The notes under the pieces are model-generated. The model searched no databases. It saw nothing but the letters and a program-made list of their open reading frames with translations, and was not told where the DNA came from. This document shows positions 23,643 through 63,895 of a stretch of 64,000 bases of DNA, in pieces; the stretch's first letter is position 1; each line of letters starts with the position of its first letter. This DNA comes from a virus. The stretch spans positions 35,686-99,685 of the IMG/VR virus record IMGVR_UViG_3300021424_002547; one strand, written 5' to 3'. Made by a program: the position numbers and the translations under genes.

Positions 23643-24032
23643 ATGGCATACAGCGATAAGGTTATTGATCATTATGAAAATCCACGCAACGTAGGTTCAT
23701 TTGATAAGAACGATGAAGATGTTGGTACAGGAATGGTGGGAGCGCCAGCATGCGGAGACGTGATGAAACTGCAGATAAAGGTCAACGAAAATGGCATTAT
23801 ATCCGATGCACGTTTTAAGACGTATGGATGTGGTTCAGCGATCGCGAGCAGTTCGCTGGTTACGGAGTGGGTCAAAGGTAAAACTCTTGAGGAAGCTGGT
23901 ACTATTCGAAACACGGAGATTGCCAAAGAACTTGCTCTACCGCCTGTCAAGATCCATTGCTCGATCCTCGCGGAAGACGCCATCAAGGCTGCGATAGAAG
24001 ACTATAAGAAAAAACATTCAGAGGCGAATTAA
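23643..24032 (+). CDS. iscU: Fe-S cluster scaffold IscU
   Basis: A 129-residue protein with the three scaffold Cys at C37 (A-C-G-D), C63 (G-C-G-S-A-I-A) and C106 (H105-C-S), Asp39, and the L99-P-P-V-K103 site used by the HscA chaperone. Numbering matches bacterial IscU. It receives sulfur from the desulfurase IscS and assembles a [2Fe-2S] cluster. No iscS, hscA or hscB is present in the window, so it would have to work with host partners. Confidence 0.94.
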   Translation: MAYSDKVIDHYENPRNVGSFDKNDEDVGTGMVGAPACGDVMKLQIKVNENGIISDARFKTYGCGSAIASSSLVTEWVKGKTLEEAGTIRNTEIAKELALPPVKIHCSILAEDAIKAAIEDYKKKHSEAN

Positions 24033-24034
24033 CA

Positions 24035-24271
24035 ATGGAACACCTCATCATGTATTGGGCATTAGTCGTTGCTCCTGCAGATTTAGGTAGAGTAGATACT
24101 GTTTTTCAAACCTACGAACCTTGCCGCGTCCAAGCAGAACAGTATAGACGCATGGGGTACAAAGCAGACTGCGTACCCACTAACCAACTAGAAATTTCTC
24201 GTAGCGAACAGCAATTACGTAGTCTAGCAAATTTGCTCTATGGTAACACTGACAGAACTAGCAGCCACTAA
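24035..24271 (+). CDS. Small hypothetical protein between iscU and iscA
   Basis: A 78-residue protein. A short hydrophobic N-terminus ([10 protein letters not shown]) is followed by a polar part with two Cys (C-R-V-Q-A-E-Q-Y and D-C-V-P-T-N). It could be a small exported or membrane-bound protein. It overlaps the iscA start by 32 nt. No function assigned. Confidence 0.5.
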
Positions 24272-24560
24272 GGTCAAAACTAATCTAGAACGCAGAGGGC
24301 AAGGCCTTGGTATCCGTCTAGGTGTTAAAACTACAGGATGTTCTGGTCTTGCCTATGTGTTAGAATTCGTAGATAAAGAATCATCCAACGACTTAAAATT
24401 CACTAGCCATGATGTAGATATTTTCGTGGATCCCAAAAGTCTTGTCTATATCGATGGTATAATCATGGATTGGCAAAAACGGGGCCTTAACGAAGGTTTT
24501 GAGTTCATCAATCCGCAGGAAAAGGATCGCTGCGGCTGTGGTGAAAGTTTTCGAGTTTAA
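24240..24560 (+). CDS. iscA: A-type Fe-S carrier IscA
   Basis: A 106-residue protein with the three conserved Cys: C34 (T-T-G-C-S-G) and C98-G-C100-G at the end. This family carries iron or Fe-S clusters to target apoproteins. Length is typical. It forms an Fe-S unit with iscU and ends overlapping by 4 nt the stop of the convergent zinc-ribbon gene. Confidence 0.92.
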
Positions 24561-42812: not shown

Positions 42813-43035
42813 AGTCTACACAAGCATGCAGGGCAAACCTATAGACATGGACAGATTATCGTTAAAAAACGAACTCACGCCTGCTATAGGAAATATGAAA
42901 GTCAATGCCAGGGGCGATGAACTAGGTCCCGGAGGACAGATTCTGAGAACCAAAGAACAGATATTACAGGATTATTACAAAAATAACCCTAGAGCATTCA
43001 AAGAAGAAGTTGTTACGAGAGGAAACAAAAAATAA
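42805..43035 (+). CDS. Small conserved phage protein
   Basis: A 76-residue basic protein, mostly polar (M-Q-G-K-P-I-D-M-D-R-L, G-D-E-L-G-P-G-G, Y-Y-K-N-N-P-R). AAGGAG lies before the ATG within the previous gene, and its stop overlaps the next ATG (TAATG). Function unknown. Confidence 0.58.
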   Translation: MGRVYTSMQGKPIDMDRLSLKNELTPAIGNMKVNARGDELGPGGQILRTKEQILQDYYKNNPRAFKEEVVTRGNKK

Positions 43036-43394
43036 TGAATTCGTCGTATAACGTGAAAAATATCAAGATACGTGCGCTAGGCGATAATGTTATTGTGACT
43101 GGAATGAATTTTGGCGAAAGAAAGACGCAAGGTGGAATCGTGCTGCGCAGCGATGATGGCAAAACTCATGGTATCCGGCCACGATGGGGTCAGGTATACA
43201 AAATTGGACCGGAACAAACAGAAGTCAGCATCGGACAATGGATTCTGATAGAACACGGCCGATGGACTAGAAAAATCCGTATCAACGACGGAGACGGTGA
43301 AAAAGATATCTGGCGTGTAGATACTGATGCGATACTGGCCACGTCAGAGGACGCTCCTAGCGCAGATGCTGAACTCATTGTAGACAGTATCTAA
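43035..43394 (+). CDS. GroES/T4 gp31-like co-chaperonin
   Basis: A 119-residue protein. I-R-A-L-G-D-N-V-I-V, a loop G-E-R-K-T-Q-G-G-I-V-L (the mobile-loop region that contacts GroEL), G-Q-V-Y-K-I-G-P and W-I-L-I-E-H-G-R follow the Cpn10 barrel order. Length is close to T4 gp31 (111 residues), which replaces GroES so that host GroEL can fold the major capsid protein. The assignment is by fold pattern; identity to gp31 is low by eye. Confidence 0.7.
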   Translation: MNSSYNVKNIKIRALGDNVIVTGMNFGERKTQGGIVLRSDDGKTHGIRPRWGQVYKIGPEQTEVSIGQWILIEHGRWTRKIRINDGDGEKDIWRVDTDAILATSEDAPSADAELIVDSI

Positions 43395-48306: not shown

Positions 48307-49024
48307 TGAAGGTCTGAGATCCAGTGATCTCAAAGAGATGGTATATAATACTTTAGAGATCGACACTTATAGATCTAAGATGGGTGAGGATCGAGATGTC
48401 TGCGTTTTAAGTTTTAAAGTCAAAGATCGGGCACCGGCTAAAGATCTAATGGAGTTTATAGAAAAAGGCTACAACTTCGTGTTAGATGCCGATGTCAGTT
48501 CCGGTGAAAACAAAAACGGTGAATATTTCGTTTTCGTAGAATTAGACCGCACAGAAAAACTCGCAGAACAGATACAAGAATTAATGTATGGCATCAAAAG
48601 GCTCACAGAGATAGATTCCTATAAATTTAAGTATCACAAAAACGACAAAGAGCATGAATTAACCACAGAATCGATCAAATCGTTCGTTCCCAATACTCCG
48701 GTAGACTACGAACGTACCATGAATAAATTACAGGTAGAAAATTATAAAAGATTTTTTAATAAGACACTCATGGACGATCTTAGTTTAGAAAAAGATATTA
48801 TTACTTTTTATAAACCTTTTGACAAATCATATAAGTTTAAAATAATCGACGATCAGGATATCACACCTATAGCAGAGGGGGCGATATCATTAGACGAAAA
48901 ATCTGTTGGAGAAACATTTTGGCTTACTAAAATGTTTGGAGATTATAATATCGCTAAAATAGGTGAAAACTTTCTATTCACCAATGGCGATAAATCAATT
49001 TTATTACAAAGGATCGAACTATGA
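48284..49024 (+). CDS. Conserved hypothetical phage protein
   Basis: A 246-residue acidic protein. I choose the ATG at 48284 (M-Q-N-N-L-P-L-N-E-G-L-R); a frame from 48242 lies entirely in the previous gene's low-complexity tail. The N-terminal half (D-R-D-V-C-V-L-S-F-K-V-K-D-R-A-P-A-K-D-L, F-V-L-D-A-D-V-S-S-G) resembles a small alpha/beta domain, the C-terminal half is beta-rich. Not identified. Its position directly before the endolysin suggests late expression. Confidence 0.58.
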   Translation: MQNNLPLNEGLRSSDLKEMVYNTLEIDTYRSKMGEDRDVCVLSFKVKDRAPAKDLMEFIEKGYNFVLDADVSSGENKNGEYFVFVELDRTEKLAEQIQELMYGIKRLTEIDSYKFKYHKNDKEHELTTESIKSFVPNTPVDYERTMNKLQVENYKRFFNKTLMDDLSLEKDIITFYKPFDKSYKFKIIDDQDITPIAEGAISLDEKSVGETFWLTKMFGDYNIAKIGENFLFTNGDKSILLQRIEL

Positions 49025-49650
49025 GTTTTACATTCGAATTTAAAAAAGAGCACCTATCTGAATTAATAGGAAAAAACCCCTATACAGATTATTGGTATAA
49101 CGCGATGTGTGAAATATTACCCGTATATGATATCAACACTCCGGAGCGTGTAGCAGCATGGTTGGCACAGTGCGCACACGAAAGCGGTTATTTCAAATTC
49201 TTAAAAGAGAATTTAAACTACAAAGCAGAAAGTCTGCTGAAAACTTTTCCCAAGTATTTTAAAACACTGGATGAAGCCAAGCAGTACGAAAAACAGCCAG
49301 AGAAGATCGCCAATCGTGTCTATGCCAATCGCATGGGCAACGGTGATGAGGCTTCGGGAGATGGATTCCGTTATCTAGGACGTGGTCTGATACAGTTAAC
49401 CGGCAAGAACAATTACACGTTCTTTGCTGCCAGCATCGATACACCTTTAGAACAGGTTCCTGAATATCTACAGACATTCGAAGGCGCCGTGCAGAGCGCC
49501 TGTTTCTTTTGGGAACAAAATGGGCTGAACAAATTCGCTGATAGCAGAGATATAGTCACTATGAGCAAGCGTATCAATGGTGGTACTATCGGCATGGAAG
49601 ATCGTCTTATGAAATACGAAAAGTGCCTTAAGATGTTTGGAGTAAAATAA
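49021..49650 (+). CDS. Endolysin, glycoside hydrolase family 19 (chitinase/muramidase-like)
   Basis: A 209-residue GH19 protein. C-A-H-E54-S-G-Y-F carries the general-acid Glu, G-D-G-F-R-Y-L-G-R-G-L-I-Q-L-T-G-K-N-N-Y the substrate-cleft signature, and S-K-R-I-N-G-G the C-terminal part of the cleft. In phages this fold cleaves peptidoglycan. No signal peptide or SAR anchor is seen, so release should need a holin. It overlaps the preceding gene by 4 nt (ATGA) and the spanin-like gene follows at once. Confidence 0.88.
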   Translation: MSFTFEFKKEHLSELIGKNPYTDYWYNAMCEILPVYDINTPERVAAWLAQCAHESGYFKFLKENLNYKAESLLKTFPKYFKTLDEAKQYEKQPEKIANRVYANRMGNGDEASGDGFRYLGRGLIQLTGKNNYTFFAASIDTPLEQVPEYLQTFEGAVQSACFFWEQNGLNKFADSRDIVTMSKRINGGTIGMEDRLMKYEKCLKMFGVK

Positions 49651-50150
49651 TGTTTGGGATAGGAGGTGCCATCAAAGCGATAGTAACGCTGATCATAGTG
49701 TTGATAGTGGCTGCAGGTGGTTATTTCCTAATCAATCTCAAAGCCGACCTCGCCATAGCCCAAGAAAATAGTCGTAAACTCGAAGAAGGAGTTCGACTAC
49801 AGAATGAGGCCATGGCACAGATGAAGGCTGATCAGGAAAAAATCAAGGATCTCAATAATGAACTTAATACCACAATTAAGTTACAAAACAAAGATATGGA
49901 GAACCTCAAAGACCGCTTCAGCACCAATGCTGCAGGTGAAAAAAGAGACTTTGGTAAAACCGCCGCTGCTAAACCCGCGAGTTTAGAACGTGCTGTTAAC
50001 AGAGGAACTATTAACGCACTGCGTTGTTTAGAAATCGCTTCAGGAGCGCCTTTGACAGAGGCAGAAAAAAATGCAACCAAACCAAGTGAAATCAATCGTG
50101 AATGCCCCTCGTTGGCTCACCCTAACTACAAGCCTGCTGCTGGTCAGTAG
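49650..50150 (+). CDS. Inner-membrane spanin (Rz)-like protein
   Basis: A 166-residue protein with one N-terminal membrane segment (A-I-V-T-L-I-I-V-L-I-V-A-A-G-G-Y-F) and then a long predicted coiled coil (~residues 30-95, heptad-like L/I/M spacing). This is the architecture of i-spanins, which span the periplasm and fuse membranes at lysis. Its position after the endolysin and its 80-nt overlap with a lipoprotein gene fit. Two Cys in the C-terminal part could form disulfides. Confidence 0.65.
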   Translation: MFGIGGAIKAIVTLIIVLIVAAGGYFLINLKADLAIAQENSRKLEEGVRLQNEAMAQMKADQEKIKDLNNELNTTIKLQNKDMENLKDRFSTNAAGEKRDFGKTAAAKPASLERAVNRGTINALRCLEIASGAPLTEAEKNATKPSEINRECPSLAHPNYKPAAGQ

Positions 50151-52115: not shown

Positions 52116-52958
52116 ATGGACTATTACTCTACTTTAGGTGTTAATAGAAACGCCACCCAAGACGAAATTAAAAAAGCGTATCGCAAGATGGCTATGAACC
52201 ATCATCCTGATCGCGGTGGAGATGAGAAAAAATTTAAACAGATTTCGGAAGCCTATGAAATCTTAAGTGATCCTCAAAAAAAACAGATGGTAGACATGGG
52301 TATAGATCCCAAGAGACAACCGCAAGGTAATGGATTCGGACAAAACGGTCCTTTCGAGTTTCATTTCAATGCTAACAATTTTGATGATATATTTGGTGGA
52401 TTCGGATTTGGTGGATTCGGACACAGACATGTTCAAAGAAACAAAACTATCAGCCTCATGGTGGATCTTACATTAGAAGATGTCTTACAAGGTAAAAATC
52501 TAGATGCAGAAATAGCCATACCTGGAGGAAGGAAAAAGATTATTAATATCGTGATACCGTCTGGAATAGAAGAAGGACAACAGATAAGATATCAAGGAAT
52601 GGGAGATAATAGCATTTCTAACATACCTCCCGGAGATTTAATAGTTAATGTTAGAATCATGCCGCACGGAATGTTTCGACGAGAAGGCGATAACCTAATA
52701 CTAGAAAAATTCATCTCAGCATGGGATGCCATGTTAGGAACAAAAATAGATATTTCTACACTAGACAACAAGTCATTAGAAATCGCTGTACCGGCAGGTA
52801 GCCAGCCCGAAACAGTATTAAGTTGCAGAAACGAAGGATTGCCAAATATGCGTAGCAAGTTAAGAGGTAATCTTTTAGTAAAAATAAAAATTAAAATACC
52901 AAAAATTACATCAACTAAACAGAAAGATCTCGTAGAACAATTGAAAAATGGATTATAA
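52116..52958 (+). CDS. DnaJ/CbpA-type co-chaperone (type B)
   Basis: A 280-residue protein. J domain residues 1-65 with H30-P-D32, a Gly/Phe-rich linker ([15 protein letters not shown]), then the C-terminal substrate-binding barrels (G-V[13 protein letters not shown], G-D-L-I-V-N-V-R). The zinc-finger C-x-x-C-x-G-x-G repeats are absent, as in CbpA. It recruits Hsp70 (host DnaK) to substrates. It overlaps def by 11 nt. Confidence 0.9.
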
Positions 52959-53442
52959 ACTAGGACCGCATCAAAGCCTTCAACAAGTAAGCACTTCTTG
53001 GGATTTTTCTCGAGACGGTGATTCTGAAAAATTAGAATCTGATCTATGTTATTTTATGCAGAAACATATGGGTATAGGTTTAGCCGCTAATCAAATAGGT
53101 ATTGCTAAACAAATTTTTGTAATGGGCAGCGATAATATTCCGGGATTTCCTAAACCCTTCGCAGTTTTCAATCCAAAAATAATCAGCACAGATCAAGAAA
53201 AAGAAATCTTCAAAGAAGGATGTCTGAGTTTCCCTGGACTTTGGTTGAACGTAAAAAGGCCAAAAAAAATAATAGTGGAGTACCAGAACAGTCGAGGAGA
53301 CATCATAGAAGCAGAAATGGACGGATTAATTTCTAGATGCTTTCAGCATGAATTTGATCATCTCAATGGTATATGTTTCGTTGACATCGTTAGTCCCTTG
53401 AAGTTAAAATTAGCAATACAAAAACTAAGGAAACAAAAATAA
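52948..53442 (+). CDS. def: Peptide deformylase
   Basis: A 164-residue protein with motifs G44-L-A-A-N-Q (G-x-G-L-A-A-x-Q), E-G-C92-L-S and Q-H134-E135-F-D-H138-L, giving the Fe2+ ligands Cys/His/His and the catalytic Glu. It removes the N-formyl group from new proteins. Deformylases are known cargo genes of marine T4-like phages. Its stop overlaps the next ATG (TAATG). Confidence 0.93.
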
Positions 53443-55772
53443 TGATAGAGCCCAGCCAGCACCTGCATAATATCTTTAATACCGCCGTTGAAATAGCCAA
53501 GCAGTTAAATCATGAGTACATCACTATAGAACATCTAGTCTATAGCATCATGAGTGATCAAGAATCGTATGACATGATTTCTAACTTTGGGGCCGATGCT
53601 AATTTTATTAAGACCAATCTAGATCATTATCTAAAAAATAACCTCAAAGAAATCATCTCACAATCTCAGGTAAAGAAACCTAAAAAAACCACTAGTGTTG
53701 AACGTGTGTTGAATCGATGTTTTACACAGGTTTTGTTCAGCGGCAGGCAACGCATGGAGATCGCAGACGTTATTATCAGTGTACTGGCTGAAAAAAACAG
53801 TTTTGGTTATTATTTTCTAAACAAAGGCGGTCTGACTAAAGAAAAATTTGTGAAATATTTCCAAGAAAATGTTATCATAGAAGAAGAACAAGAAAGTATT
53901 CCAGCGACCACGAACAATCAGATAGAAAGAATTCTAAATCAATTCTGCACGAACCTAACCTTACAGGCTAAACAACGTAAGATTGATCCGGTGATAGGAC
54001 GAGACGAAGAATTAGAAAAAATCCAACTGATTCTAGCACGTAGAAATAAATGCAATGTGTTAATGGTAGGAGAACCCGGAGTAGGCAAGACTGCGATCGC
54101 AGAGGGGTTGGCTCGAAAGATTTTCGAGGACAAGGTTCCTAAATTTATCAAAGACCATACAGTCTATACTTTAGATATATCAGCATTATTAGCCGGGTCA
54201 AAGTATCGTGGTGACTTTGAAGAACGAATCAAAGCCGTATTCACCGCACTAGAAAAAAAAGGTAAGATCATTTTATTCATCGACGAAGCACACATGATGC
54301 AGGGTGCAGGGGCCGCTAATCAATCAAGCAACGATATGAGCAATATGCTAAAACCCATATTGACCAAAAAGTCTATGAAAATCATAGCGTCCACTACCTG
54401 GGAAGAATATCGAAAGCACTTTGAAAAAGACCGTGCTTTGATGCGTCGTTTCCAGCGTGTGACCATCGATGAACCCAATGAAGAACTAACTATTAAAATC
54501 TTAAAAGGATTGAAAAAGTATTATGAAAAACATCATGAAGTAAAAATTACCGATGCTGCTATAGATCAGGCTGTGAAACTTTCTATGAAATACATGTCAG
54601 ATAAAAAACTGCCAGATAAAGCCATAGATATCTTAGACTGCGCAGCGGCTCGATATAAACTTAAAGATGACGAAAATATGGAAGGTGTAGAACAGATCGT
54701 AGATATAGAACAGGTTACCTACGAACTCAGTAAGATGATCAACATGCCATTAGAGATTGTTGCTCAGAAAGAAAGCAAAAATCTTTCTGATCTAGAAGGA
54801 AATATGAAATCATCAGTTTTGGGTCAAGATGGAGCTATTGATACACTGCTAGATAAAATATTCGTCAGCCAAGCAGGAATGAAATCACCTAACAAACCTG
54901 TTGGAAGTTTTCTATTCCTAGGACCTACTGGCTGTGGAAAAACTGAAACTGCCAAACAATTAGCAGAAAAGATGGGAATGCAATTAGTTCGATTCGACAT
55001 GAGCGAGTACCAAGAAAAACACTCGGTGGCTCGTCTGATCGGTGCTCCACCGGGCTATGTAGGATACGAAGATAATTCCGGTCAACTGATCACTAAATTA
55101 CAAGAATATCCCAATTGTGTGTTGCTGCTAGATGAAATCGAAAAAAGCCATCCTGATGTTTCTAACATCTTGCTGCAGTTTATGGATAACGGTTTCGTCA
55201 CAGGATCGAATGGCAAACAGGCCGATGGTCGCAACTGTATCCTTATCATGACCAGCAACTTAGGTGCCCGGGACAACGAAAACAACACCATCGGGTTCGG
55301 CGAACTTGAGCGCGAAGGAGAAGATGATAAAGCTATTAAAAAGTTTTTTGCTCCGGAATTTCGCAATCGACTAGATGCAGTAGTGAAATTTGGTAGATTA
55401 AACATCGAAACTGTAGAAAAAATCGTACATAAATTTATCAACGATTTAAACTTCCAACTTAGAGACAAGAATATTGAAATAGTAGCAGATGATAATTCTG
55501 TTAAATGGTTGGCAAAAAACGGATATGATCGAAAAATGGGAGCCAGACCGTTAGCCAGATTGATCGATAATAAAATAAAATCACCGTTGAGTAGAAGGGT
55601 TCTGTTTGGCGATCTCGTCGACGGCGGAAATATACACATCCAACTATCTGGAGAAGAAATCACTTTTACCGTCACTGAACGGGCGAAACCGTTAACAAAA
55701 CAACAGAAAAAATTATTAAAGAGAGGATCTCCTTTAGTGATGGAAGAAAAAATCGAAGATGCACAAACATAG
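53442..55772 (+). CDS. clpA: ClpA-type AAA+ unfoldase
   Basis: A 776-residue protein with an N-domain (~1-150), AAA1 Walker A G210-E-P-G-V-G-K-T217, Y-R-G-D-F-E-E-R pore loop, AAA2 Walker A G494-P-T-G-C-G-K-T501 and S-D-M-S-E-Y-like D-M-S-E-Y segment. The coiled middle domain of ClpB is missing, so it is ClpA-like. I617-G-F619 sits at the position of the ClpP-docking loop of ClpA, which suggests it can feed host ClpP. It would redirect host proteolysis. Confidence 0.9.
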
Positions 55773-57864: not shown

Positions 57865-58200
57865 ATGAAATTATTAGAAATGTTTAGTCCCATTGGGGCT
57901 CCTAAAGACGATCAACAAGATATTGATTGGTTAGAAGATCTTAAATTTTTTATCGACAATGACGATAAGATGCTCAATCAATTTTTCTTTCCTGCTATAA
58001 AAAAGCACAAGGAGCATCAAGGAAATCCTAATGCATACAAACTGTACATCAGACCGTTGAGTAAATGCAAAGAAGCCTATTGCAAAAAATTTGAAATCGA
58101 GCAACCGGAAGAAAAATTTACAAAAGAAAAGATTATCGAACTAGCCAAATATATCGCTTCAGAACAAGAAAACTTTTTGAAAAAAGGCGATTATAATTAA
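57865..58200 (+). CDS. Small hypothetical protein of packaged-protein cluster
   Basis: A 111-residue helical protein beginning M-K-L-L-E-M-F-S-P-I-G-A. Three Cys fall in S-K-C-K-E-A-Y-C-K and nearby. The ATG lies 1 nt after the previous stop; a frame from 57793 lies in the preceding gene's conserved end and is rejected. Type known to me as a recurrent marine-phage unknown. Its stop overlaps the next ATG. Confidence 0.58.
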   Translation: MKLLEMFSPIGAPKDDQQDIDWLEDLKFFIDNDDKMLNQFFFPAIKKHKEHQGNPNAYKLYIRPLSKCKEAYCKKFEIEQPEEKFTKEKIIELAKYIASEQENFLKKGDYN

Positions 58201-60656
58201 TGTTATTATCAGAATTATTCGAAGATTCAGTCAAGCATGTTACATTCTGTTTCGGTAGAATGAATCCTCCTACCATAGGTCACAAACAGGTCCTAGATAC
58301 TATGAAATCTCAGGGCGGGGAAATAAAGATATTCGTTAGCCAGAGCCAAGATGCCAAAAAGAATCCTCTAGATTATTCTACCAAGATCAAATTCATCAAG
58401 GCCATGTTTCCAGAATATGCCCAGGATGTGGTAGAAAATTCTAGCCTAAACACCGTGGTCAAGGTGGCCAGTTATCTCTATGATCAGGGATATACTGCTG
58501 CGACATTTGTCGCAGGTAGTGATCGTCTAGACGATATGAAAAAACTACTGGAAGCATATAATGGAGTAGAAGGTAAGAGCCACGGTTATTACAAATTCGA
58601 AGTGCTAGATTTTGCCAGCAGCGGTGAGAGAGAAGACGGTGCTGAAGGTGTTGCAGGTGTTTCAGCTAGTGGTGCCAGAGCGGCGGCAGCTAATGGCGAC
58701 TTGGAATCGTTTAAAGAAGCCACAGGGGCCGGTGAACTAAGCGAAAAGTTATATGCGGCTGTTCGTAAAGGTATGGGCATATCAGAATCATACAAAATCG
58801 CAGAATCCGTTTCTATAGATTCAGCGATAAAGAATATCGTTGCTACAGGTGATAGTGTCGCAAAGACCTATGGCGATCTCAAGACCATGGCGGAGAAGTG
58901 GGTCTATAACAACGGCACGCTCAAAGGATTCCACAGGAATGCCGCAGGTGTAGGTAAACGTTGGTATGACACATTCTTTTGGAACAAGATGGAAAACGAT
59001 CTACGCACACTGCTACAGAAAAATCCCAAGGCCGCAGCGAAGATACAAGACTTTCTCAACATAGAGAAGGACGACAAAGGTCATGTCAGTTTTAACATCA
59101 TCGGACGCAGCCTGCCGAGAATATTAAACGACGTGGGCGAGAAAATGGGCAACGACGATCTCAAGAGATTTGGTGCTAACTGGTTCAAGCGACAGAAAGA
59201 CTACGAAGATTATCTAGGTCGTGTAGAAAAAGAAGTAAACGATGAAGAAGATGATGATGACTTCTCTCCCGCACCTAAACAACCCAAAGACAATGTGGTA
59301 GGCCGTCAGAACGCTGCTGCCGAAGACATAGTAAACCAGATACTCAAGAGTATTGACAAGAAGGCTGCGGGAGAGATACGCAACATCATCGCCAGAGAGC
59401 CTAATAAACTACAGGCCCTGCAGAAAGAGTTAGCGAAACGCAACATCAAGGTAGGCGAATCGATACGCAGGATAAAGGAACAAATCCTCGCCGAACTGCT
59501 CGAACTAACTACAGAATTCGTGAAATTAAATGACGGTAGTTTTGTTCAGATACAATATAGACCGATGTTAAACAGGCAACCTATGCCAGGTTCCGTACAA
59601 ATATCGGTAGCAGATCCAAGAGTCATTCCTAATATCACAACAGTTAGGCCGTTGGCCTCTGCGGGAGCATGGCAGCAGGACGCAATAAACAAAGCAGCAT
59701 CATCTGGACAGTTAAAACAAAAACAATCAGGACAAGGTGTGGCGGAAGGCATCCGTGTGGTAGATCAAGACTACGATCTCGATCAAATCATATTAACTTT
59801 AGATATCGAAGGTCGGAGAGCATCATTTACCTATACTGATTACGATGAGAACTTTGAAAACGCAGAAAGAAAGGATGTGTTTGATCAACTACAGGAAAAA
59901 TCATGGTATAAGGGTTTAGATCATCCTACTAAAATGGAGATCTTAGATGCTGCCTACAAGGCTATAAGAGGTGAAGAACCGAGCGAATACAAACCTACAG
60001 TTGGTGATGAGCCATTAGACATAGACGAAGGTGTCTCGGAAGGCGATTTAGAAGAAGACTGGCGGAAGAAATTGGCCGCTGCGGGCATGGCCGGCATGAT
60101 GGGACTCAGCGGTGCTGCTGGTGCAGCAGATCGTGTACCGGATACTGCCAAAGAACCTATCATAGCTACTGTAGTCATCGACGGTGAAGCGAGGAGATTA
60201 GATCTCACTCCTAAAGGGTTTGACGATGTCAAAGAAGCAGAAAGATTTTTAAAAAAATTCTTGGCGGATCGAGGTATAAAAGATTGGCAGGCCAAGATAG
60301 AACGCAGTAAACCGGGAACAGGCAAGTATGAGAGGTTGACTATCTCAGGCATGGGTGGATTAGAAAGCATACATGAAGCGCCTATAGAGATGGATCCTAG
60401 CGATCCAATGGATCCTATGATCTACGGACACGATCGAGCCAATCCCGGAAAACTGAAATATCGCATGGCAAGAGCGGCCGGACAATTAAAAGATCTATCT
60501 TCGAGAGTAGACGGTGCAAGCGCCAGTGAATGGCAGATGATGGCTCGTCAATTCGAAGAACTGAAGATGAACATGGAACAGATAAGACATGCCTTGGAAG
60601 AACTGGGCAAAGTCAGGAAGAAGGGTGGCATTCGATCGATGGGAATAACAGTATGA
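58200..60656 (+). CDS. Multidomain polyprotein: N-terminal nucleotidyltransferase plus V-x-E-G-linked modules
   Basis: An 818-residue protein. Residues 1-10 (M-L-L-S-E-L-F-E) resemble a targeting peptide. Residues ~12-195 form a HIGH-type nucleotidyltransferase: F-G-R-M-N-P-P-T25-I-G-H28, F-V-A-G-S-D-R and S-A-S-G-A-R (as in NadM-like adenylyltransferases). A helical part follows. Linkers G-V-A-E-G (59736-59750), G-V-S-E-G (60030-60044) and S-I-H-E-A mark further modules. The segment after the second linker (D-W-R-K-K-L-A-A-A-G...A-G-A-A) looks like a latent signal peptide. Probably cleaved by the prohead protease; this is inference. Confidence 0.68.
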   Translation: MLLSELFEDSVKHVTFCFGRMNPPTIGHKQVLDTMKSQGGEIKIFVSQSQDAKKNPLDYSTKIKFIKAMFPEYAQDVVENSSLNTVVKVASYLYDQGYTAATFVAGSDRLDDMKKLLEAYNGVEGKSHGYYKFEVLDFASSGEREDGAEGVAGVSASGARAAAANGDLESFKEATGAGELSEKLYAAVRKGMGISESYKIAESVSIDSAIKNIVATGDSVAKTYGDLKTMAEKWVYNNGTLKGFHRNAAGVGKRWYDTFFWNKMENDLRTLLQKNPKAAAKIQDFLNIEKDDKGHVSFNIIGRSLPRILNDVGEKMGNDDLKRFGANWFKRQKDYEDYLGRVEKEVNDEEDDDDFSPAPKQPKDNVVGRQNAAAEDIVNQILKSIDKKAAGEIRNIIAREPNKLQALQKELAKRNIKVGESIRRIKEQILAELLELTTEFVKLNDGSFVQIQYRPMLNRQPMPGSVQISVADPRVIPNITTVRPLASAGAWQQDAINKAASSGQLKQKQSGQGVAEGIRVVDQDYDLDQIILTLDIEGRRASFTYTDYDENFENAERKDVFDQLQEKSWYKGLDHPTKMEILDAAYKAIRGEEPSEYKPTVGDEPLDIDEGVSEGDLEEDWRKKLAAAGMAGMMGLSGAAGAADRVPDTAKEPIIATVVIDGEARRLDLTPKGFDDVKEAERFLKKFLADRGIKDWQAKIERSKPGTGKYERLTISGMGGLESIHEAPIEMDPSDPMDPMIYGHDRANPGKLKYRMARAAGQLKDLSSRVDGASASEWQMMARQFEELKMNMEQIRHALEELGKVRKKGGIRSMGITV

Positions 60657-61798
60657 AAGCCAAAGATTTTATACCCGCAAGCAAACCTAGAAACTTTGTA
60701 GCCAAGAATCAACAGACCGCAGGCGCTGGTGCACATCGCGACAAGAAGAAAGCGCAGAAACAGGGCTACGAGAAGCACAAAGGCAAAGGTGTCCGGGAAG
60801 GCAGTAAAATCGCTGTAGATCGCAAAACCGGTCGATACTATGATCCAGATAAAGAACTTGACAAACTATTGAACCAACACAAAGCTCAATTTCAAGGTAT
60901 GGCCGCGATTGAAAAAGCACAGAGTTCTGCTAAAAAAGCCAAACCTAAAAAGCCAGATGTCTCAGAAGGCGACGAACCAGATGAGCAGTATCTAGACAAG
61001 GTCATCAGCGATCTATACAAGGATACCTACGGTATGCGTCCAGATCACGAGTTCGGTCGAGAGTGGATGTCAAGCAATTACGAAGAAAAACTTGAGATCT
61101 ATAACAGCATATTAAAAAATCTACACAGTGATATGGATGAAGGTATTGGTGGTACGATCGCCGGTGGCGTGGGTCAGTTCATTGGCAATAAAATCGATCC
61201 TCTACATGGAGAAATCTTAAGAACTCACGGTGAGATGGCTGGTAGAAAAGCAGAATATATTATACGAAAGTATATGCACTTACTACAGAAATCTCTCAAG
61301 AAACAACTAGATTCTGGAGAGAAGGAAGGTGTCCGAGAAGGCAGCGACTGGGGCGAACCTAGAGAGATACTGGAAGATGTTCTACAGACTTTGGAGCGTG
61401 AAGTAGAGTGGCCATTGACCGAGGTAATGGATCCTAGAGAAGTACGCCAACTATTGGCACCTATCATAAAAGCAGTAAATGATAAAATGATGAGTATGAA
61501 AGAAGCACAAGACGACTGGGGCGGTATGAGCCACAGAGAATTCAAGCGTAAAGAATTACAGCATGAACTAGGACATGAAGACGATCCGGACTTTGAACGC
61601 AAGATGCGCCAACAACAGATGGATAAGGATAAAGGCCCGTGGTATATCCGTATCAATGGTAAGATCTACAAGCAGAAGGGCGAAGCCAAAGTGTTCGACT
61701 GGAAAAAAGGTGCTAACAATTATGCCCTAGCCATACTGAAGAACAAGCCGGAGTTGCAAGGTAAAGTCCTGATAACTAAAAATCCCTCGGATCAATGA
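60653..61798 (+). CDS. Predicted packaged polyprotein with three V-x-E-G linkers
   Basis: A 381-residue charged protein starting M-K-A-K-D-F-I-P-A-S, a diverged targeting-like N-terminus. Linkers G-V-R-E-G (60788-60802), D-V-S-E-G (60956-60970) and G-V-R-E-G (61328-61342) separate four short modules: a Lys/Gln-rich one, a small D-R-K-T-G-R-Y-Y-D-P helical one, a glycine-rich module with an I-A-G-G-V-G-Q-F-I-G-N-K stretch, and a C-terminal domain ending W-Y-I-R-I-N-G-K-I-Y-K-Q-K-G. The ATG overlaps the previous stop; the frame from 60530 is read from the wrong phase of the upstream gene. Confidence 0.62.
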   Translation: MKAKDFIPASKPRNFVAKNQQTAGAGAHRDKKKAQKQGYEKHKGKGVREGSKIAVDRKTGRYYDPDKELDKLLNQHKAQFQGMAAIEKAQSSAKKAKPKKPDVSEGDEPDEQYLDKVISDLYKDTYGMRPDHEFGREWMSSNYEEKLEIYNSILKNLHSDMDEGIGGTIAGGVGQFIGNKIDPLHGEILRTHGEMAGRKAEYIIRKYMHLLQKSLKKQLDSGEKEGVREGSDWGEPREILEDVLQTLEREVEWPLTEVMDPREVRQLLAPIIKAVNDKMMSMKEAQDDWGGMSHREFKRKELQHELGHEDDPDFERKMRQQQMDKDKGPWYIRINGKIYKQKGEAKVFDWKKGANNYALAILKNKPELQGKVLITKNPSDQ

Positions 61799-62034
61799 TG
61801 GAAATCGCAGAATTAAAAAGGTTGGCTGGTATCAATGAATTTAAAGGATATGTAAAATACGATCCTGTAAATCCCAACGATGGTAGTAATATCAGCATAA
61901 CTGGTAATGAAAAGGGCGAAATACAGAAAAAAAACAATATAAAACCAGGAACTCCTGAATGGTTCCAACTATGGTTTAGTTTGCCTTACATGACCGGGGA
62001 ACGTCCAGTAGGAGATAAAAAATGGTTGAGATAA
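61795..62034 (+). CDS. Small hypothetical protein of packaged-protein cluster
   Basis: A 79-residue protein starting [16 protein letters not shown], an amphipathic helix with an I-x-E site. The rest is polar. ATGATG overlaps the previous stop, and it overlaps the ErpA-like gene by 13 nt. No function recognised. Confidence 0.52.
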
Positions 62035-62348
62035 CTGAAGCAGCAAAAATAAAGATCATAGATCTGTTGATTGACGAAAACAATCCCAAGTTATTTCTCC
62101 GCACCTTTGTGCAGGGAGGTGGATGTAGCGGTTTCAGTTATGGATTTACTTTTGATGAAGAAGTTAATGAAGATGATTTTGAATTTTCTCTAGATGAAAA
62201 ATATAAGTGTGTTATTGATTCTATGAGTATGCAATACATGACCGGAGCGACAATAGATTATAAAGAAGAACTAATGGGTAGTCAGTTTACCATAAAAAAT
62301 CCAAATGCTGAAACTACCTGCGGATGTGGGAGTAGTTTTTCTATATGA
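62022..62348 (+). CDS. erpA: A-type Fe-S carrier, ErpA-like
   Basis: A 108-residue protein with C35 (G-G-G-C-S-G-F) and C100-G-C102-G-S-S-F. The V-E-I-T-E-A-A start, the [14 protein letters not shown] segment and the length fit ErpA more than IscA. It delivers Fe-S clusters to target enzymes. It is the second A-type carrier in the window and lies among predicted virion proteins, away from iscU/iscA. It overlaps both neighbours. Confidence 0.88.
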
Positions 62349-62719: not shown

Positions 62720-63895
62720 GTGAGAGCCCGAGAATTCGTCATCGAGAAGAAACGCCGCAAGCGTAGACCACGGTGGGCTGCCTATGGTCCAGGACCCTAC
62801 GGCGGTTATGGCTACTACGCAGGTTATAGTGGAGACGGCGGAGGCGGTGATGGCGGAGTAGGTGAAGCCAGCTATCCCGGCAACGTCGGAGCCATGGAGA
62901 TAACTAAATTCTTTAGGATAGCAGGTCCTAAAGAAAAAGATCTGTTGAAAGTGTTGATACAACGCAAAGACTACAGCCGAGCCTGGGCATTGATACAGGG
63001 TATCACGGGTGTAAAACTACAGGGACGAGAATTCCAAACCGACGAAGGATGGCGAGATACACTGGCTGGATTGGCGTTAGGTACCGGTGTAGCCATGGGC
63101 AGCCCTGCTGATGCTAAAACTAATGTAGAACGAGTTGTCGTATCACCGGGACAAACTGTGTATTCTATAGCCAAAGCATTTGATACTACCCCGGAAGTCA
63201 TTCAAAAATTAAACAAATTAGATAAAGATTTTACTATCAAACCCGATCAGGTTATAAAAGTTCCTAAGATAGATACAGTTGAAATTCCTTCTAAAGAAAA
63301 AAAATCTATTGATAGTAAAAAATCTGTAGAAAAGAAAGATGAAAAGAAATCCGAAAAGAAAATAGACACCAACAAAACTCTAACCGGAAAACCTTTTGAA
63401 GCATTGCTAACTCGAACCGCTCGGTCGTCCGGAATCACAGATCCTATCGAACTGGCGGCTTTCCTAGCCCAGACTTCTGTAGAGACTGGAAGATTCAAAC
63501 ACATGAGAGAAGTCGGCAACAAAGAAAGGATCGAAAGGATGTACGATCTAAAATTCAACCGACAAGGTGCTAAGATACTAGGCAATACCAAACCCGGAGA
63601 CGGCTGGAGATATCGAGGTAGAGGATTTATACAATTGACTGGCAGAGACAATTATACCAGAGCCGGCAGAGATCTCGGCCTCGATCTAGCCAAAGATCCC
63701 GATCTAGTGGCCAGAGAGCCTGAAGTCGCGGCCAGAGCCAGCGTATGGTATTGGAAAACCCACGTTAGACCACAGGTAAACGATTTTAGAGATACTGCTG
63801 CAGTTACCAAAGCGGTTCAAGGGGGGTCGTCTGCGCTGGATCGTAGAGAACGCGAATTCCAAAATTTTAAACAATTACAATTGGCTAAAATATGA
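62720..63895 (+). CDS. LysM-GH19 muramidase with capsid-targeting-like N-terminus
   Basis: A 391-residue protein starting at GTG: M-R-A-R-E-F-V-I-E, then a basic Gly/Tyr-rich spacer with a V-G-E-A site. A hydrophobic segment after T-D-E-G-W-R (63047-63115, ending S-P-A-D-A) resembles a signal peptide. A LysM domain follows (S-P-G-Q-T-V-Y-S-I-A-K...I-K-P-D-Q-V-I-K-V-P), then a Lys/Glu/Ser linker and a GH19 domain (S-V-E-T-G-R-F, then G-W-R-Y-R-G-R-G-F-I-Q-L-T-G-R-D-N-Y). It should bind and cut peptidoglycan. Distinct from the endolysin at 49021; probably carried in the virion. Confidence 0.75.
   Translation: MRAREFVIEKKRRKRRPRWAAYGPGPYGGYGYYAGYSGDGGGGDGGVGEASYPGNVGAMEITKFFRIAGPKEKDLLKVLIQRKDYSRAWALIQGITGVKLQGREFQTDEGWRDTLAGLALGTGVAMGSPADAKTNVERVVVSPGQTVYSIAKAFDTTPEVIQKLNKLDKDFTIKPDQVIKVPKIDTVEIPSKEKKSIDSKKSVEKKDEKKSEKKIDTNKTLTGKPFEALLTRTARSSGITDPIELAAFLAQTSVETGRFKHMREVGNKERIERMYDLKFNRQGAKILGNTKPGDGWRYRGRGFIQLTGRDNYTRAGRDLGLDLAKDPDLVAREPEVAARASVWYWKTHVRPQVNDFRDTAAVTKAVQGGSSALDRREREFQNFKQLQLAKI

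What the first reader, a model, noticed from the sequence alone, without database searches (positions are those of the whole stretch)
63041..63115. Latent signal peptide exposed by prohead-protease cleavage in the muramidase
After the site T-D-E/G the LysM-GH19 protein continues G-W-R-D-T-L-A-G-L-A-L-G-T-G-V-A-M-G and ends S-P-A-D-A before the LysM domain: an Arg, a hydrophobic core and an A-x-A. Cleavage in the head would leave a product that starts with a Sec-type signal. A very similar segment (D-W-R-K-K-L-A-A-A-G...) follows L-E-E in the polyprotein at 58200 (60057-60128). This could export an injected enzyme into the host periplasm.
Basis: inference. Interest (0 to 1): 0.66.

Follow-up and report, generated by a model that had tools for sequence, protein, structure and literature searches.

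The report
Hidden export signals in packaged phage proteins
Many uncultured T4-like phages seem to pack enzymes in their heads whose export signals lie buried mid-protein, right behind the site where the head's own protease should cut, which suggests the enzymes are injected into a cell and then sent on to its envelope by the cell's own export machinery.

Summary
The segment is real and at the stated coordinates. Residues 110-132 of a 391-residue LysM-GH19 protein form a Sec-type signal (short basic start, uncharged hydrophobic core, A-D-A) buried behind a T4-style capsid-targeting N terminus. The idea was tested on about 280 fetched loci and held. Signal-like segments begin right after a protease-type site ([LVI]-x-E) in 62 unrelated upstream contexts, at residues 6 to about 1,350. 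A rule-based signal test passes at 104/105 of the Sec-type sites against 3/897 other [LIVMF]xE sites in the same proteins, and two of the three exceptions are themselves a Tat and a lipoprotein signal. Decisively, the signals come in three unrelated export classes: Sec/AxA, Tat (DRRGFLKG, recognised by Pfam and NCBIfam) and lipoprotein. Sec and Tat swap between the same upstream and downstream domains, including HAD-signal-GH19. Relatives carry gp21 protease and gp23. Caveats: the window's own site is T-D-E|G, outside the L/I-x-E rule, although many relatives conform. No cultured phage has the module. Cleavage, packaging and export are inferred and were not measured. Best reading: packaged, head-matured, injected, then exported.

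The parts
62720..63895 (+). LysM-GH19 muramidase/chitinase-like protein, 391 aa, with N-terminal packaging region
   Evidence: ORF; LysM and Glyco_hydro_19 above Pfam cut-offs; endolysin PHROGs
62720..62746 (+). capsid-targeting-like N terminus MRAREFVIE, compare T4 IPIII MKTYQEFIAE|A
   Evidence: sequence; T4 IPIII read; CTS function from PMC9026906
62858..62866 (+). upstream protease-type site V-G-E|A (residues 47-49), invariant in relatives
   Evidence: alignment A1
63038..63046 (+). T-D-E|G site in front of the signal (residues 107-109); homologues have LDE, VEE, VDE, VGE
63047..63115 (+). latent Sec-type signal GWRDTLAGLALGTGVAMGSPADA, predicted signal-peptidase cut after A132
63137..63265 (+). 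LysM domain
   Evidence: Pfam PF01476 residues 140-182
63410..63874 (+). GH19 catalytic domain
   Evidence: PHROG 181 residues 231-385, Pfam PF00182
58200..60656 (+). 818-aa polyprotein: cytidylyltransferase-like domain plus modules
58200..58226 (+). capsid-targeting-like N terminus MLLSELFED
   Evidence: sequence
60033..60041 (+). protease-type site V-S-E|G
   Evidence: sequence
60048..60056 (+). protease-type site L-E-E|D in front of the second signal
60057..60128 (+). second latent Sec-type signal DWRKKLAAAGMAGMMGLSGAAGAA
60156..60353 (+). exported-cargo candidate domain PIIATVVIDGEARRLDL.. (beta-beta-alpha-beta fold predicted from relatives)
   Evidence: alignments A3, A6; model
49021..49650 (+). 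separate GH19 endolysin of the phage, showing that 62720-63895 is not the only, and probably not the main, lysis enzyme
   Evidence: PHROG 181 E 2e-74; followed by a membrane-anchored i-spanin-like ORF 49650-50150

Best explanation
The LysM-GH19 protein is a phage internal (head) protein in precursor form. Its T4-style N-terminal targeting sequence takes it into the prohead, and the extra N-terminal region keeps the export signal buried, so the protein is packaged and not secreted by the cell that makes it. Head maturation by the gp21-type protease cuts after glutamate and leaves a product that starts with, or close to, GWRDTLAGLALGTGVAMGSPADA. After injection with the DNA, the signal sends the enzyme through the new host's Sec pathway, signal peptidase removes it, and LysM-GH19 acts on periplasmic peptidoglycan. 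The window polyprotein at 58200 and many relatives use the same plan with Sec, Tat or lipoprotein signals. Shown here: anatomy, conservation, position behind the site, exchange of signal classes, and gp21/gp23 in relatives. Inferred: packaging, cleavage, injection, export, and the place and time of action.
For: (1) About 105 distinct Sec-type modules follow E| at residues 12 to about 1,350 of proteins that mostly have targeting-like N termini, 91 with hydrophobic P3 (background 7%); 22 of 23 distinct Tat modules, found with a pattern that did not include the site, also follow [LIVMF]xE (background 7.8%). (2) The signal rule passes 104/105 Sec and 21/23 Tat modules, against 3/897 other [LIVMF]xE sites in the same proteins. 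(3) Tat motifs hit Pfam TAT_signal in 10/10 proteins tested, 4 at or above cut-off, and NCBIfam TIGR01409 above cut-off in 7 of 8. (4) Exchange of signals: HAD-Sec-GH19 (L052) vs HAD-Tat-GH19 (L282); cytidylyltransferase-Sec-domain (L063) vs -Tat-domain (L276); L071 vs L271. (5) Third class: lipobox versions VIDE|GIKK..TLSGC and IEE|GWREK..TSGC. (6) Single polyproteins carry two signals: Sec+Tat L262/L165, L279, L283; Tat+lipo L270. (7) Peptidase_S77 and Gp23 occur in 9 related contigs. (8) The separate endolysin makes a lysis role unlikely.
Against: The window's site T-D-E|G lacks the L/I at P3, and no gp21/gp23 is found in this incomplete record. Some GH19 relatives keep a hydrophobic segment but lack a clean AxA (GGPAAYDAY). 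The h-regions are only moderately hydrophobic (8-residue maximum 1.74 here against 2.3-3.1 in eight E. coli examples). One cargo motif (RVxPG..NRLTGKP) also occurs without a signal. L282's Tat lacks a canonical site. No cultured phage has the module and no protein data exist.
Confidence: 0.74

Rival explanations
1. The signals work in the producing cell, not the next one: fragments cut out by the head protease leave the prohead with the other propeptides late in infection and are exported to the producer's periplasm, tying export to head maturation.
For: Propeptides are thought to leave the head in tailed phages (PMC10052503; PMC9026906). Several modules are short and bounded by sites on both sides, for example in L142 and L262.
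Against: The GH19 product is about 280 residues, large for pore exit, and T4 internal proteins stay in the head and are injected. Hiding the signal is needed only if the protein must first enter the head.
Confidence: 0.12
2. The segments are inherited remnants of host or phage secreted proteins that were fused into head proteins and no longer work as export signals.
For: Cargo such as LysM-GH19 is normally secreted; the N-terminal hydrophobic part of secreted LysM families aligns weakly from residue 121.
Against: Fossils should decay. Here 104/105 keep all signal features, in 62 upstream contexts, directly behind a site, and are replaced by Tat or lipoprotein equivalents.
Confidence: 0.05
3. 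The hydrophobic segment is a membrane anchor, membrane-entry helix or head-assembly element, not a signal for the export machinery.
For: Gly/Ala-rich segments with conserved GW; some GH19 relatives have no AxA.
Against: Replacement by twin-arginine motifs and by lipoboxes; AxA followed at once by variable cargo; nothing known in head assembly needs RRGFLKG.
Confidence: 0.06
4. The signal becomes N-terminal by internal translation start and not by proteolysis.
For: Internal in-frame ATG/TTG codons exist upstream (residues 59-91).
Against: No in-frame start codon lies between residues 91 and 118 in the window. Across 121 modules only 5 have a start codon with a Shine-Dalgarno-like sequence within 14 codons upstream.
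Confidence: 0.03

Closest known systems
T4 internal head proteins (IPI, IPII, IPIII, Alt) and the gp21 head protease
   Same: N-terminal capsid-targeting sequence (IPIII MKTYQEFIAE|A; here MRAREFVIE), cut after glutamate by gp21 (L/I-x-E), packaged and injected (PMC9026906, PMC9958956). Relatives encode gp21 and gp23.
   Different: T4 internal proteins act in the host cytoplasm and have no described export signal. Here many are multi-module and each signal-bearing module starts at a protease-type site.
Giant-phage ejection proteins with long propeptides (phiKZ, SPN3US)
   Same: Head proteins with N-terminal propeptides of 111-254 residues removed by a gp21-like protease (PMC10052503).
   Different: The terms 'signal peptide' and 'periplasm' do not occur in that paper's main text.
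Sec, Tat and lipoprotein signal peptides of Gram-negative bacteria
   Same: n-, h- and c-region with AxA, RRxFLK, or lipobox.
   Different: They sit tens to more than a thousand residues inside the precursor, behind a viral protease-type site, instead of at the translation start.
SAR endolysins and other phage endolysins
   Same: GH19/LysM catalytic architecture and a hydrophobic export element.
   Different: The element is internal behind a 109-residue head-targeting region, and the phage has another GH19 endolysin next to a spanin-like gene.
Bacterial effectors whose self-cleavage exposes a hidden lipidation or targeting site in the host cell (from own knowledge, not tested)
   Same: Works alike: proteolysis unmasks an N-terminal address.
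   Different: Different delivery machine, protease and address; no homology claimed.

Membership tests
T4-type gp21-processed internal head protein | N-terminal capsid-targeting sequence of about 10 residues | tested here: inconclusive
   MRAREFVIE / MLLSELFED resemble T4 MKTYQEFIAE; resemblance only, T4 work shows residues 4, 7, 8, 10 matter
T4-type gp21-processed internal head protein | cleavage site L/I-x-E | tested here: inconclusive
   window GH19 site is T-D-E|G (not met), its upstream V-G-E|A and the polyprotein L-E-E|D fit better; 59 of 62 upstream contexts have L/V/I/M at P3
T4-type gp21-processed internal head protein | genome encodes gp21 protease and gp23 capsid protein | tested here: inconclusive
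   not found in this incomplete 99,685-base record; found in 9 related contigs
T4-type gp21-processed internal head protein | present in the mature virion in cleaved form and injected | not testable with these tools
   needs virion proteomics
Sec signal peptide (signal peptidase I type) | basic n-region, uncharged hydrophobic h-region, AxA c-region | tested here: met
   net +1, 8-residue maximum 1.74, A-D-A at position 23 of the matured form; rule-based, not SignalP
Sec signal peptide (signal peptidase I type) | located at the N terminus of the translocated chain | tested here: not met
   internal in the primary product (residue 110); N-terminal only after the proposed cleavage
Sec signal peptide (signal peptidase I type) | directs export | not testable with these tools
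   needs a reporter test
Tat signal peptide (relatives only) | twin-arginine motif recognised by curated models | tested here: met
   PF10518 in 10 of 10 proteins, 4 at or above cut-off; TIGR01409 above cut-off in 7 of 8; the window protein itself has no RR in the signal
Bacterial lipoprotein signal (relatives only) | lipobox Cys after h-region | tested here: met
   L270 TLSGC, L298 TSGC; L299 TPGC is off-consensus
phage endolysin of the lysis cassette | catalytic domain of endolysin families | tested here: met
   PF00182, PF01476, PHROG 181
phage endolysin of the lysis cassette | lies with holin/spanin genes and is the genome's lysis enzyme | tested here: not met
   another GH19 endolysin lies at 49021-49650 beside a spanin-like gene

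The most novel reading that the evidence does not exclude
A general two-step delivery system: T4-like phages pack polyproteins into the head, the head protease turns them into many proteins that each begin with a freshly exposed Sec, Tat or lipoprotein signal, and after injection the new host's own export pathways place them in its envelope within moments of infection.
Probability: 0.6. Interest if true: 0.93.

Novelty: new variant of a known kind. Interest (0 to 1): 0.85.

Why it matters
Injected phage proteins are known to act in the cytoplasm. If these signals work, phages also equip the new host's periplasm and membranes at the moment of infection, before any phage gene is expressed, using the host's Sec, Tat and lipoprotein pathways. 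It would explain why the signals are hidden (a protein with an open signal would be secreted by the producer before packaging) and gives head proteolysis a second role as an address switch. Virion-encoded envelope effects such as superinfection exclusion, wall repair or envelope defence become testable through N-terminal mapping and simple reporters. It also warns that signal predictors run on whole phage ORFs will tend to miss these signals because they look at the translation start.

Tried and rejected
Internal translation start: no suitable start codon or ribosome site in general. Lysis-cassette endolysin: a separate one exists. gp21/gp23 in the window's own record: not found, record incomplete. 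Cultured phages: nine tblastn searches with module, N-terminal, cargo and Tat queries found no isolate with the module; only the unrelated C-terminal part of L142 matched cyanophages and pelagiphages. Bacterial genomes: no relative of the ITIAYV cargo with its signal. Cargo fold: small beta-beta-alpha-beta model, no significant PDB match. Literature: seven full-text searches found T4 and giant-phage head proteolysis but no report of signal peptides exposed by it; the library is open-access only. Possible bias: scans used patterns containing E-G-W, so P1 = E in those sets is partly built in; the GH19 set and the Tat set were found without it and give the same picture.

Full report
WHAT WAS CLAIMED AND WHAT IS THERE. 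The stated segment translates exactly as written and lies at residues 108-132 of a 391-residue ORF at 62720-63895. Behind it come a LysM domain (residues 140-182) and a GH19 domain (231-385). The window is 64 kb of a 99,685-base IMG/VR virus record. The phage has another GH19 endolysin at 49021-49650, followed by a membrane-anchored spanin-like ORF, so the LysM-GH19 protein is probably not the ordinary lysis enzyme.

SETTING. The proteins near the segment begin [27 protein letters not shown] and the like. T4 IPIII, read from its record, begins MKTYQEFIAEA, and such ends are the capsid-targeting sequences of T4, cut by gp21 after L/I-x-E (PMC9026906, PMC9958956). The window's own record shows no gp21 or gp23, but it is incomplete. 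Nine related contigs have Peptidase_S77 and Gp23. In their gp23 a candidate site KYL[SA]E|S precedes the conserved body of the protein.

THE MODULE IS WIDESPREAD. Homologues of the LysM-GH19 protein keep E|GW[KR]D plus a hydrophobic segment directly before LysM or GH19, whatever lies upstream. In some, V-G-E|GWKDW sits about 50 residues from the start; in others it follows a HAD domain at residue 240 or later. The same module, [VLI][DE]E|GWK.K(L/V)A.AALAG...AxA, occurs in other proteins with targeting-like ends, at residues 12 to about 1,350, in front of quite different cargo.

OTHER EXPORT CLASSES. In L010/L056 the cargo domain that elsewhere follows the Sec-type module follows VDE|VDRRGFLKGLGAAALAGTGISAAA, a twin-arginine motif. 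A collection scan for DRRGFLKGLG, a pattern that says nothing about a protease site, gave 28 loci and 23 distinct cases. Almost all are internal, typically GVAEGSLEE|IDRRGFLKG, and 22 of 23 follow [LIVMF]xE (background 7.8%). Pfam TAT_signal matches all ten proteins tested, four at or above its cut-off, and NCBIfam TIGR01409 exceeds its cut-off in seven of eight. Among control sites two further cases appeared: LTE|MNRRGFLRGLAG (L148) and a lipoprotein signal, VIDE|GIKKSAAATALATCMAAGGTLSGC (L270). Relatives of the latter read IEE|GWREK...TSGC and LEE|GWKER...TPGC. So the GW module exists in AxA and in lipobox form.

EXCHANGE BETWEEN MATCHING NEIGHBOURS. L282 and L052 share a HAD domain upstream and a GH19 domain downstream, yet L282 has the Tat motif and L052 the GWKDW module. 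L276 and L063 share a closely similar cytidylyltransferase region up to ...RKGMGIKES and differ in the signal, Tat against GWKSK. L071 and L271 share the cargo domain and differ in the signal. One polyprotein can hold two kinds: Tat and Sec in L262/L165, L279 and L283; Tat and lipoprotein in L270. Unrelated sequences that share only an export function, placed at the same spot, are hard to explain unless export is the function.

QUANTITATIVE CONTROL. A simple rule (basic start, uncharged hydrophobic stretch, small residue at -3 and Ala at -1) passes 104 of 105 Sec-type and 21 of 23 Tat-type modules when read from the glutamate. It passes 3 of 897 other [LIVMF]xE sites in the same proteins, 0.6% of all positions, and 9.9% of shuffled modules. 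The window GH19 segment passes (8-residue maximum 1.74, net charge +1, A-D-A). Its hydrophobicity is at the low end compared with eight E. coli signals (2.3-3.1). By upstream context there are 62 clusters, 59 with L, V, I or M at P3. Carriers are rich in G[VLI]xE[GA] (89 against 10.9 in shuffles), as expected of multi-cut polyproteins, though shared ancestry contributes.

LIMITS. The window's own site is T-D-E|G; several GH19 relatives share this or have AAE|G or EQE|G, while others have LDE, VEE, VDE or VGE. Cleavage could instead occur at the invariant V-G-E|A (residues 47-49), which would leave a 60-residue extension. A few GH19 relatives lack AxA. One cargo motif occurs without a signal. 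Scans used E-G-W patterns, so the glutamate is partly selected there; searches are free of that. No cultured phage carries the module. Cleavage, packaging, injection and export are inferred.

MECHANISM AND RIVALS. Best reading: packaged through the targeting end, unmasked by the head protease, injected, exported by the new host. The hidden position makes sense because an open signal would send the protein to the producer's periplasm before it could be packaged. The main rival is export in the producing cell of fragments that leave the prohead. Internal translation start is rejected. Fossil signals and structural helices fit poorly with the exchange of signal classes.

NOVELTY. The carrier type (T4-like internal proteins processed by gp21) is known. 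Seven full-text searches found no report of export signals uncovered by a head protease. I rate it a new variant of a known kind in its parts, with a strong chance that the working principle is new.

Noticed in passing
window 23643-24032, 24240-24560, 62022-62348: The phage encodes an IscU-type scaffold (NifU_N, E 4e-55) and two A-type iron-sulphur carriers (Fe-S_biosyn), an unusual iron-sulphur assembly set for a phage.
   Followed up: partly
L017 17533-19020 (record positions, upstream of the window): A TctA tricarboxylate-transporter gene (Pfam E 7e-139), preceded by ORFs that look like TctC and TctB by eye, lies in the phage record.
   Followed up: partly
window 43035-43394, 52116-52958, 52948-53442, 53442-55772: Host-type protein-quality genes: GroES-like, DnaJ, peptide deformylase, ClpA/ClpB-type ATPase.
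   Followed up: partly
L140 3938-4960, L145, L153, L154, L168: The short motif RVxPG..PGINRLTGKPxE occurs both behind latent signals and, without a signal, in other head-type proteins; its role is unknown.
   Followed up: no
window 60653-61798 and 60530: The mechanical ORF at 60530 probably starts at MKAKDF (60653, overlapping the stop of the polyprotein); it has V-R-E|G and V-S-E|G sites and a DUF7230-like N-terminal part.
   Followed up: no
L058, L062, L066, L071, L087 and others: The AAYGPGP..YSGDGG linker and the GVKLQGxEF domain recur in front of unrelated C-terminal modules (ENFADGK.., HAD, metallopeptidase-like), showing free shuffling at VGE|-type junctions.
   Followed up: partly
L259 5439-6338 and three near-identical loci: A Tat signal at the very start (MKITE|IDRRGFLKG) in front of LysM and a transglycosylase SLT domain.
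   Followed up: partly
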